From: Haloplasma contractile SSD-17B
GTDB taxonomy: Bacteria; Bacillota_I; Bacilli_A; Haloplasmatales; Haloplasmataceae
Reading direction: 5' to 3'
Length of the DNA stretch: 64,000 nucleotides
Assembly (NCBI RefSeq): GCF_000215935.2
Contig: NZ_AFNU02000002.1
Span: forward strand, 186,001-250,000
The position numbers and the translations under genes were made by a program. Under the pieces are notes generated by a model. It made no database searches. It was not told where the DNA came from and was given only the letters and a program-made list of their open reading frames with translations. This document shows positions 2,093 through 12,952 of this stretch, piece by piece (the first letter of the stretch is position 1; every line of letters begins with the position of its first letter).

Positions 2093-3220
2093 TTAGAATG
2101 GCCTCTGACTATTTCCTCTCATATCAATTTCAATAAGTTTTTCAATTGAGTTATTTCGTATTCCAACCAAATAACGACTCATGTTACATACCTTACAACT
2201 ATGATTTGGTATTATTTTTATTTGATCACCTACCACCAAATTCGTCATGTTATTTGCTTTTATTACACCTACTTCTTCTGATAAGTTGACAATCTCAAGT
2301 TCAGGATGATCGACAACATACCCAAATCCATTTATATTTTTATTACCATGCGCTCCCTTGTCAAGACCTAATGTTTTGCTTCCACAATCAATTATAAACG
2401 TATCGTTTTCTTTCTTGGATATAATTGTACAAAGCACGGTCAATGCACAATCCGTAAGAGACACGACACCTAGAGATACTTGAATCATATCATTAAACAC
2501 ATAATTACCAGGTCTTAAGGCATTATAAAAATCTGATTTTAAATCCTCTTTGAATGTTGGAGTAGAGCCTGTTGCAATCAATTCTGGTTCTATACCGTAC
2601 GCTCTTAGCGCTTTTACGGCTCTTTTCATTGTTTCATGAACAGACTTAGCAATTGTTATTACACTACTATATCGGTCTTCCTTGTATACCTGTCCTGGAT
2701 GTGTTGTAATCCCTCTAAACGTTAGCGATTTAAAATTAATTTTTATATAATTTACTACTGGGACGATGTCACTTGGTGAAATTCCAAAACGATTTAATCC
2801 AGTATTTATTATAATCACGTAATGCATAACTATATTTTTTTTGCAAAAATAGTCATTATAAAATTTAGCTGTCTCTAATGAATCTATACTTAATGTGATC
2901 CTAATACGTTTCGAACAGTCCTGTATTAAATGCATATTTTTCTTCCCTAAGAAAGGGTATGCTAATGTTACATTCTTTTTTAGTTTACTAATACGAACTG
3001 CTTCATCCACAGTACCAACCAAGAACTCATTTACACCCATAAGCACTTGCATTTTTGCTATATCAGACGATTTATGGGTTTTAATCATCGGTATTAATTC
3101 TATACTTGCTTGATCACATAACTGCTGATACTGCTTCAGATTTCTCTCTAGTATAACTAAATCAACTAATAATGCTGGCGTTCGTAGTTCACTAACATTA
3201 CCTAAGTTCATAAACATCAT
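2093..3220 (-). CDS. D-threonine aldolase / D-serine dehydratase-like PLP enzyme (alanine racemase-type fold)
   Basis: A 375-residue fold-type III PLP enzyme of the D-threonine aldolase/DSD1-like group. The N-terminal TIM barrel starts with the conserved TPALLVDL and carries the probable Schiff-base lysine K47 in MIKTHKS. The C-terminal domain holds PNHSC (H340 and C342), the zinc site typical of this group. It probably acts on D-beta-hydroxy-amino acids (D-Thr to Gly plus acetaldehyde, or D-Ser to pyruvate); the two activities cannot be told apart from sequence. The second ATG pair (MMFM) leaves a few residues of uncertainty in the start. It is a single gene with no neighbouring pathway genes and belongs in the cytoplasm. 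Confidence 0.85.
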   Translation of the reverse strand: MMFMNLGNVSELRTPALLVDLVILERNLKQYQQLCDQASIELIPMIKTHKSSDIAKMQVLMGVNEFLVGTVDEAVRISKLKKNVTLAYPFLGKKNMHLIQDCSKRIRITLSIDSLETAKFYNDYFCKKNIVMHYVIIINTGLNRFGISPSDIVPVVNYIKINFKSLTFRGITTHPGQVYKEDRYSSVITIAKSVHETMKRAVKALRAYGIEPELIATGSTPTFKEDLKSDFYNALRPGNYVFNDMIQVSLGVVSLTDCALTVLCTIISKKENDTFIIDCGSKTLGLDKGAHGNKNINGFGYVVDHPELEIVNLSEEVGVIKANNMTNLVVGDQIKIIPNHSCKVCNMSRYLVGIRNNSIEKLIEIDMRGNSQRPF

Positions 3221-3311
3221 TTCCCTTATTAATAGTAATTGTGATACTCATATATATTTTAAAGTTAACTTCAGGTTATCTAACGATTCTTTGCTCGTCA
3301 TTTATTTATAT

Positions 3312-3348
3312 AAAAAAACGGAAGAGTTTATTCCTTCTTCCGATGTTT
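3312..3348 (-). terminator. Terminator originally serving dgkB
   Basis: On the minus strand CGGAAGA and TCTTCCG form a 7-bp stem followed by seven Ts. It now lies beyond the inserted 192-bp element, about 250 bases after the dgkB stop. Confidence 0.85.
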
Positions 3349-3405
3349 TTTAACCAAGCTATATTATGTTATACTCACCTGTACAAGAATTAAATTCTTA
3401 TCCTT

Positions 3406-3613
3406 TTTCTGAACGCTCTGATAGTGAAACGCGTTGTTATTAAAAGACAAATAAACAGAGCGTCTGTTCTTCATAGTAAGAGTTTAGAAAAATTAGTAAA
3501 GCATTTATGACAGATTTTTCACTTTAAACACGATTAATTTATGCATTTTTTATAAAAAATTGAAAGTAAATGTGTCCTATAGTAACATGAACAGCTAACA
3601 GAGCCTTTCTGAA
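3406..3613. mobile_element. MITE-like element, copy A, with 8-bp target duplications
   Basis: The element spans 3414-3605 (192 bp) and is flanked on both sides by TTTCTGAA (3406-3413 and 3606-3613), a perfect 8-bp target duplication. Its ends are inverted: the left end reads CGCTCTGATAG and the right end, reverse-complemented, GGCTCTGTTAG. A third inverted copy of the end motif (CAGAGCG, 3456-3462) can pair with the left end to form a subterminal hairpin. There is no open frame of note, so it is non-autonomous. A second copy lies at 12452-12642. The insertion sits in the last codons of dgkB and supplies its present stop codon. 8-bp duplications are made by several DDE families (for example ISL3, IS256, IS1595); the parent is not in the window. 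Confidence 0.85.
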
Positions 3614-4512
3614 AAGTGTTTATTATCCGTTCTAGGAACGTATATTTCTAGATGTCTCTTCAAATTTTTAAACTCACCTTTTAGCATACCTCCATATTCA
3701 CCATCTAAGTTCAGCTTAACATCTCGTTCTACTGAAATACTTATACTATTAGCCTTGAGGTATTTAATCTTAGCATGTTTTAGATGTTTGCCACTTAGTG
3801 TCTGAATACCTAACCCTAATAGCTTAGGAAGAATCATCTTTTCTATAATGATGAGGTCAAATTGACCATCATCTAATTTTGACTTAGAGGCAAGACGTTC
3901 AAAACCACCCACTGAATTTGTATTGCATACTAAAAATAAAACAATGTCCCCATCATAAACATGGCCATCATATTCAATATGTGCATTCATTGGAGTCATA
4001 AACGGTAACTTTCTTATTCCTCTAAAATAATAAGCAAGCGAACCTAAAACCGTTTTTAATTTGCTAGGCACCTCGTAAGTAACCTCTGACAATGCACCAC
4101 CGGCTGCTATATTCACAAAGTACTTATCATCTGCTTTTCCTATATCTAGTTCTCGACTAAAACCATTTACTATAATATCGCAAGCAGCTTTTACATTTCT
4201 TGGTATTTCTAGTGCTCTGGCAAAATCATTAGTAGTACCTGACGGTATTAATCCTAATCTAGGACGGTATTCCTTCTCAGCTAGCCCATTTACAACTTCA
4301 AAGATCGTACCGTCTCCACCAGCTGCAATTACTAAATCATAACGTTGTTTTACCGCCGTCTCTGCAGCATGTTTTGCACACCCTGGCCCTTTTGTAGCAT
4401 GTACACTTGCCTCATATCCCGCATCTTCTAAACGCTCTAGTATATAAGGTAACCGTTTTTTGATTAACTCTTTACCCGATGTTGGATTATAAATCAAACG
4501 CGCTCTTTTCAT
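3595..4512 (-). CDS. dgkB: Diacylglycerol kinase DgkB, C-terminus altered by element insertion
   Basis: A 305-residue soluble lipid kinase close to Bacillus DgkB along its whole length. The N-terminus is KRARLIYNPTSGKE, the nucleotide-binding GGDGT lies at residues 65-69 (AAGGDGTIFEVVNGL), followed by PSGTTNDFARAL, VPSKLKTVLGSLAYY, VGGFERLASKSKLDDGQFDL and LNLDGEYGGML. It phosphorylates diacylglycerol to phosphatidic acid, recycling diacylglycerol from lipoteichoic acid synthesis at the membrane. GGGGA precedes the ATG. The last residues RLC and the stop codon are encoded by the end of an inserted 192-bp element. Removing the element and one target copy restores a frame ending in KG and then TAA, so the enzyme should remain functional. 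Confidence 0.93.
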   Translation of the reverse strand: MKRARLIYNPTSGKELIKKRLPYILERLEDAGYEASVHATKGPGCAKHAAETAVKQRYDLVIAAGGDGTIFEVVNGLAEKEYRPRLGLIPSGTTNDFARALEIPRNVKAACDIIVNGFSRELDIGKADDKYFVNIAAGGALSEVTYEVPSKLKTVLGSLAYYFRGIRKLPFMTPMNAHIEYDGHVYDGDIVLFLVCNTNSVGGFERLASKSKLDDGQFDLIIIEKMILPKLLGLGIQTLSGKHLKHAKIKYLKANSISISVERDVKLNLDGEYGGMLKGEFKNLKRHLEIYVPRTDNKHFSERLC

Positions 4513-12443: not shown

Positions 12444-12650
12444 TTTATTTTCGCTCTGTTAGTGTAACGTGTTGTTAATAAACATCTTATAAACAGAACG
12501 TCTACACCTAATAGTAAGGGCATTATTGATTAGTTAAGCATTTCAGACAGATTTTTCACTTTAGATTTATTCCAGGTTAACATTCTATATGAAAAATTGA
12601 GAATAAATGCGTCTTAAAGCAACAATGTCCGCTAACATAGCCTTTATTTT
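12444..12650. mobile_element. MITE-like element, copy B, with 8-bp target duplications
   Basis: The element spans 12452-12642 (191 bp), flanked by TTTATTTT on both sides (12444-12451 and 12643-12650), a perfect 8-bp target duplication. Ends: left CGCTCTGTTAG, right (reverse complement) GGCTATGTTAG; the similarity of the two ends continues imperfectly for about 25 bases. It aligns end to end with copy A at 3414-3605 with a single-base length difference; by hand about two thirds of positions are identical, including GACAGATTTTTCACTTTA and AAAAATTGA blocks. No coding capacity. It lies directly after the stop codon of the 102-aa gene, between that gene and its terminator. Confidence 0.85.
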
Positions 12651-12952
12651 AAATTAATTTCTAAAACAATTAAATTATCGTTTAACTCTTTAAAGTATGT
12701 ATTCTTCTCTTCTAGCATTTTATTAAACAAGGATTTAACACTATCTATATTTTTATCTATTGTAATAGTTGCTGGCACCTGTTCTGTACCCTTCATACCA
12801 AATGTAACCATAACAGTTTCATCATCTTCAATATCATGAATTAAATCTGTGTCGTTAAGTGATAAGGCTCGTATCTTCTCATCTTCTGTTGTATAGTGCA
12901 TGATCCGTTCTTTTCCATTTGCTAAAATTTTAAATATACCTTTTTTATCCAT
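12644..12952 (-). CDS. Small split-barrel-like protein, paralogue of the gene at 10168
   Basis: A 102-residue soluble protein beginning MDKKGIFKILANGKERIM. It aligns over its full length with the 103-residue product of 10168-10479 with only two short gaps, so the two arose by duplication. It is strand-rich with a C-terminal helix (SLFNKMLEEKNTYFKELND). AGGAGG lies 8 bases before the ATG. The TAA stop lies inside the 8-bp target duplication of the inserted element, so the insertion just spared the coding sequence. Function is unknown; a split-barrel flavin-type fold is a possibility only. Confidence 0.7.
   Translation of the reverse strand: MDKKGIFKILANGKERIMHYTTEDEKIRALSLNDTDLIHDIEDDETVMVTFGMKGTEQVPATITIDKNIDSVKSLFNKMLEEKNTYFKELNDNLIVLEINLK

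What the first reader, a model, noticed from the sequence alone, without database searches (positions are those of the whole stretch)
3406..3613. 192-bp transposase-less element with perfect 8-bp target duplication rewrites the end of dgkB
The segment 3414-3605 is bracketed by TTTCTGAA on both sides and has inverted ends (CGCTCTGATAG left; GGCTCTGTTAG right, reverse-complemented). Its right end supplies the present TAG stop of dgkB. Deleting the element and one target copy rejoins the dgkB frame as ...FSEKG then TAA, against the present ...FSERLC. The ancestral stop and the original terminator (3312-3348) sit on the far side. The insertion can therefore be reconstructed base by base.
Basis: seen in the sequence. 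Interest (0 to 1): 0.8.

Follow-up and report, generated by a model that had tools for sequence, protein, structure and literature searches.

The report
Miniature IS1595-type transposon inside dgkB
A 192-base 'jumping' DNA fragment with no transposase of its own, one of about twenty in this genome and related by its ends to the IS1595 family of bacterial transposons, landed on the last codons of a lipid-kinase gene and supplies its stop codon: well documented here, but of a known kind.

Summary
Window 3414-3605 is bracketed by TTTCTGAA, has imperfect inverted ends, and its right end gives dgkB its last residues (RLC) and TAG stop; removing it and one repeat restores ...NKHFSEKG-TAA. The insertion reading is well supported. 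The genome holds about 20 diverged copies (57-92% identical). Of 15 scored end pairs, 8 have perfect duplications of exactly 8 bp; no other register gives any. A second copy lies in the window at 12452-12642 (TSD TTTATTTT). I add the parent: the same ends (GGCTCTGTTAG...TGTTG) bound complete IS1595-family elements with 8-bp duplications in a relative, in Clostridium celatum and in Paenibacillus rhizophilus. In this genome only decayed IS1595 transposases were found, so the family looks stranded. The exact empty site could not be tested (no same-genus genome held); seven relatives lack the element and have unrelated, variable DgkB tails. This is a new MITE family of a known kind. The change to DgkB (KG to RLC) is small and probably neutral. 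A side finding, transposase-less cassettes with the same ends carrying small passenger genes, is of more biological interest.

The parts
3406..3413 (.). left copy of the 8-bp target duplication TTTCTGAA
3414..3605 (+). 192-bp transposase-less element (MITE), oriented as the family consensus CGCTCTGTTAGTGAAACG...GCTAACAGAGCC
   Evidence: aligned end to end with other copies in the genome
3414..3440 (+). left terminal inverted repeat, 27 bp, imperfect (16/27 to the right one)
3579..3605 (-). right terminal inverted repeat GGCTCTGTTAGCTGTTCATGTTACTAT; read in the dgkB frame its first bases encode ...R-L-C-stop
3606..3613 (.). right copy of the 8-bp target duplication TTTCTGAA
3595..4512 (-). dgkB, diacylglycerol kinase (DAGK_cat + YegS_C), 305 aa; last three residues and stop are set by the element
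3398..3400 (-). inferred former dgkB stop codon (TAA), now separated from the gene by the element
3312..3348 (.). hairpin with T-runs on both strands, probably the intrinsic terminator of dgkB
12444..12451 (.). left target duplication TTTATTTT of the second copy
12452..12642 (+). second copy of the family in the window (191 bp)
12643..12650 (.). right target duplication TTTATTTT of the second copy; on the minus strand it contains the stop codon of the ORF 12644-12952

Best explanation
The segment is a miniature inverted-repeat transposable element (MITE), one of about 20 recognisable copies in this genome. Its ends derive from IS1595-family insertion sequences. An IS1595-type transposase, acting in trans, recognised the roughly 27-bp ends (consensus SGCTCTGTTAGYGRA...TGTTGYTA) and inserted the element at an 8-bp staggered cut in an AT-rich site, which duplicated TTTCTGAA. 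Shown: the ends, the family, the 8-bp duplications, and the association of such ends with IS1595 transposases in other genomes. Inferred: that an IS1595 transposase moved this copy. No intact transposase was found in the assembly, so the family is probably no longer self-sufficient here. The insertion fell after the first base of the second-last codon of dgkB's inferred old reading frame, so the element's right end now completes codon R and provides L-C and the TAG stop, replacing an inferred K-G-TAA. dgkB transcripts must cross the element to reach the old terminator. The effect on DgkB function is most likely nil.
For: Copies: ten hits (itself included) over more than 80% of the element, the best other one 86% identical; a profile gives 23 hits at E<1e-6. 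Ends: 55 genome hits of the terminal pattern against 0 for the reversed control. Target duplications: 8/15 perfect at exactly 8 bp, mean 7.2/8, against 2.6-3.9/8 at other shifts. Parent: in this genome an IS1595 transposase fragment lies inside a 913-bp element with such ends and a perfect TSD TTAATAAT; two 1626-bp elements in G039 (tnp 349 aa, PF12762, TSDs AAAAATAA and TTTATTAA) and elements in C. celatum (1679 bp, TSD TTTTATAA) and P. rhizophilus (2296 bp, TSD TTAAGATA) have matching ends. DgkB: orthologues in seven family members end in variable tails (296-305 aa in all) without the element. Literature: IS1595 members have 8-bp TSDs (PMC8101967); an IS1595-derived 165-bp MITE with 25-bp IR and 8-bp DR is known in Haloquadratum walsbyi (PMC3852290); IS1595-family ISApl4 prefers A/T-rich 8-bp sites (PMC12561309).
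Against: No genome close enough to show the exact empty site was available. The terminal repeats of this copy are weak (16/27). The interior of the MITE matches no full-length element beyond about 40 bp at the left and 29 bp at the right, so simple internal deletion of a known parent is not shown. No intact IS1595 transposase was found in this genome.
Confidence: 0.93

Rival explanations
1. The element belongs to another family that makes 8-bp duplications, such as IS6/IS26 (ends GGCTCTGTTGCAAA, recalled from memory) or ISL3.
For: The first nine bases, GGCTCTGTT, resemble IS6-family ends (memory), and the duplication length is the same.
Against: Beyond base nine the ends follow the IS1595-associated pattern (TTAGNGNANNNTGTTGNTA). 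The transposases found between such ends score on PF12762 above its cut-off; the IS240 DDE domain (PF13610, IS6 type) scores below its cut-off.
Confidence: 0.03
2. The repeats are not mobile DNA but dispersed structured RNA or regulatory elements that happen to share ends.
For: Copies are intergenic almost without exception, and RNAalifold proposes a left-end hairpin.
Against: Target duplications of exactly 8 bp. No Rfam match. The consensus fold is only -2.1 kcal/mol with essentially no covariation, and single-copy RNA folding has z = -1.55.
Confidence: 0.02
3. The element is a MITE, but the rewritten end of DgkB was selected (domestication) and not merely tolerated.
For: The copy keeps a perfect duplication and an open, normally terminated dgkB.
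Against: Only a two-residue tail is replaced. Tails of orthologues differ in length and sequence. All other copies examined are intergenic, two of them with a stop codon inside the duplication, which fits purifying selection against harmful sites.
Confidence: 0.03

Closest known systems
IS1595-derived MITE of Haloquadratum walsbyi (ISHwa6-related, 165 bp, 7 copies; PMC3852290)
   Same: Miniature, transposase-less, about 25-bp inverted ends, 8-bp duplications, only the ends resemble the autonomous partner.
   Different: Archaeal host and different sequence; here more copies, strongly diverged, and no intact partner found in the genome.
IS1595 family of insertion sequences (Zn-ribbon + ISXO2-like DDE transposase; PMC8101967)
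   Same: 8-bp duplications; full-length elements with the same terminal motif carry a PF12762 transposase.
   Different: This element has no transposase and only the ends are shared.
Coxiella QMITE1/QMITE2 (PMC5896051)
   Same: MITEs at the 3' ends of genes that supply stop codons or C-terminal residues (e.g. ubiB, enhC).
   Different: Different families and duplication lengths; no IS1595 link is mentioned there.
Mobile insertion cassettes (MICs) of Bacillus cereus (named in PMC3281130)
   Same: The 921-bp lipoprotein cassette and others here have IS-type ends and duplications but passenger genes in place of a transposase.
   Different: The MITE under study carries no gene; which IS family mobilises the B. 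cereus MICs was not checked here.

Membership tests
MITE (miniature inverted-repeat transposable element) | short element without a transposase gene | tested here: met
   192 bp; no ORF of 60 aa or more lies inside it
MITE (miniature inverted-repeat transposable element) | terminal inverted repeats | tested here: met
   imperfect, 16/27 in this copy, 17-19/27 in other MITE copies
MITE (miniature inverted-repeat transposable element) | multiple dispersed copies | tested here: met
   23 profile hits at E<1e-6, 28 at E<=0.01
MITE (miniature inverted-repeat transposable element) | target-site duplication of family-specific length | tested here: met
   8 bp, 8/15 perfect, none longer
IS1595-derived (non-autonomous member) | 8-bp target duplication, AT-rich | tested here: met
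   literature PMC8101967, PMC12561309
IS1595-derived (non-autonomous member) | ends shared with elements that encode an IS1595 (PF12762) transposase | tested here: met
   elements in G000, G039, C. celatum and P. rhizophilus
IS1595-derived (non-autonomous member) | intact autonomous partner in the same genome | tested here: not met
   only truncated or decayed PF12762 genes, no PF12760 Zn ribbon; not a requirement for a MITE, and the assembly is in 34 contigs
IS1595-derived (non-autonomous member) | mobilised by an IS1595 transposase | not testable with these tools
   needs an experiment
IS6/IS26 | DDE transposase of IS6 type between ends of this kind | tested here: not met
   PF13610 scores below its cut-off, PF12762 above

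The most novel reading that the evidence does not exclude
The genome carries a whole stranded mobile economy of the IS1595 type: about twenty MITEs plus gene cassettes (a lipoprotein, small membrane proteins) that keep perfect 8-bp duplications, although every IS1595 transposase found is broken. Past or transient transposases, possibly arriving by horizontal transfer, would have moved both the MITEs and single host-useful genes as cassettes.
Probability: 0.35. Interest if true: 0.45.

Novelty: new member of a known kind. Interest (0 to 1): 0.27.

Why it matters
It gives a base-by-base example of a bacterial MITE that alters the end of a conserved protein. It also links a large repeat family, for which I found no earlier description, to IS1595 elements across several Bacillota. 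The terminal motif found here can be used to annotate such MITEs and passenger cassettes in other genomes.

Tried and rejected
Rfam scan of 3000-4000: nothing. Conserved RNA structure: weak, no covariation; RNA fold z = -1.55; single-strand DNA fold z = -2.0, expected from the inverted ends. Plasmid records: no match. Terminal pattern in viral contigs: 4 hits, not followed up. Literature on this organism's transposons: nothing relevant (the organism name was a guess, because own-genome records are withheld). Target preference for gene 3' ends or terminators: considered because both window copies sit at stop codons, but across 23 copies the flanks are an ordinary mix of intergenic positions, so it is not claimed.

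Full report
Observation. The sequence is as described. The repeat TTTCTGAA stands at 3406-3413 and 3606-3613, and the 192 bases between them begin CGCTCTGATAG and end CTAACAGAGCC. dgkB (minus, 3595-4512) encodes a diacylglycerol kinase with the DAGK_cat and YegS_C domains. Its last residues, ERLC, and its TAG stop run into the element. Joining the flanks at one repeat gives ...NKHFSEKG followed by TAA, and the putative terminator hairpin lies about 55 bases beyond.

More than chance. A search of the window's own genome (3.4 Mb, 34 contigs) finds the element again at 70-86% identity in nine other places, including a second copy in the window at 12452-12642 with the perfect duplication TTTATTTT. 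A sequence profile built from twelve copies gives 23 hits at E<1e-6 and 28 at E<=0.01. The 25-base terminal pattern has 55 hits in the genome against none for the reversed control. Among 15 end pairs scored, 8 have identical 8-mers immediately outside the ends, the mean is 7.2 of 8, and shifting the register by one to four bases brings it to 2.6-3.9; no pair has a duplication longer than 8. The pairs were partly found with the help of flank similarity, which inflates the mean; the sharp peak at exactly 8 bp and the complete matches are too strong to come from that alone (chance of a perfect match 1.5e-4 per pair).

What it is. The copies are 57-92% identical to each other, and this one is closest (86-88%) to the copy at C4:99402-99588. 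They carry no transposase and no conserved ORF was seen. Their ends, SGCTCTGTTAGYGRA...TGTTGYTA, also bound longer elements. In this genome, C4:10740-11652 (913 bp, TSD TTAATAAT) contains the C-terminal part of an IS1595-family transposase (PF12762) and a 66-residue membrane-protein-like ORF. C5:48223-49143 (921 bp, TSD TTAGTGTA) contains a 207-residue lipoprotein-like gene and no transposase. In a relative of the same class, two 1626-bp elements with such ends and perfect 8-bp duplications encode a 349-residue IS1595 transposase. Elements of 1679 bp in Clostridium celatum and 2296 bp in Paenibacillus rhizophilus have the same layout. In this genome the IS1595 transposases found are truncated or decayed and the family's N-terminal zinc ribbon is not detected.

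How it works. The most economical account is that an IS1595-type transposase acted in trans on the ends, cut an AT-rich target with an 8-base stagger, and so duplicated TTTCTGAA. That the transposase was of the IS1595 type is inferred from shared ends; that an insertion took place is as good as shown. In dgkB the event exchanged an inferred K-G-stop for R-L-C-stop. Orthologues in seven members of the family end in tails of different length and sequence, without the element, so the exchange is probably neutral. dgkB mRNA would now carry about 190 extra bases before its terminator; no conserved RNA structure was found there.

Placement. All other copies examined lie between genes; only one of 23 sits between divergent genes. 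In two of them (12452-12642 here, and C13:56624) a stop codon lies in or beside the duplication itself. This fits selection against harmful insertions together with an AT-rich target, and I do not claim a preference for stop codons.

What is known. IS1595 members make 8-bp duplications (PMC8101967), and A/T-rich sites are preferred by the IS1595-family element ISApl4 (PMC12561309). A 165-bp IS1595-derived MITE with 25-bp repeats and 8-bp duplications has been described in Haloquadratum walsbyi, and that paper stresses that MITEs often share only their ends with the partner IS (PMC3852290). MITEs that give genes a new stop or a new C-terminus are known in Coxiella (PMC5896051). [quoted passage not shown] the paper itself was not available here. 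The element is therefore a new family of a known kind.

Limits. The exact empty site was not seen, since no same-genus genome is held. The assembly is in 34 contigs, so an intact transposase may be missing. That the passenger genes are mobile rests on their duplications and ends alone.

Noticed in passing
L060 1224-2144 (G000:C5:48223-49143): Transposase-less 921-bp cassette with IS1595-type ends and perfect TSD TTAGTGTA carrying a 207-aa lipoprotein-like gene; a further end (GGCTCTGTTAAAG type) sits just inside its right end, perhaps a nested or composite element.
   Followed up: partly
L059 1241-2153 (G000:C4:10740-11652): 913-bp element, perfect TSD TTAATAAT, with a truncated IS1595 transposase and a small membrane-protein-like ORF (66 aa) as passenger.
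   Followed up: partly
L122, L123, L129, L130, L132, L125, L127, L139, L142, L146: IS1595-type elements in other Bacillota regularly carry one different passenger gene each (small membrane protein, DUF4825 lipoprotein, SnoaL-like protein, methyltransferase, others), with or without a transposase, and mostly with 8-bp duplications.
   Followed up: partly
L086 2030-3517 (G000:C7): IS1595 transposase of about 230 aa without its N-terminal part, with a 191-aa passenger gene, next to an end of a second subtype (GGCTCTGTTAAAGAAGATTGTTGATT); its left end was not found.
   Followed up: partly
window 12643-12952: Second MITE copy is inserted directly behind a 102-aa ORF whose TAA stop lies within the target duplication.
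   Followed up: yes
L065 about 1191-1387 and L085 about 1777-1973 (G000:C2:4190 and C21:10076): The same 197-bp element-like stretch and flanking matches occur near the start of contig 2 and in contig 21, suggesting a duplication or an assembly overlap.
   Followed up: no
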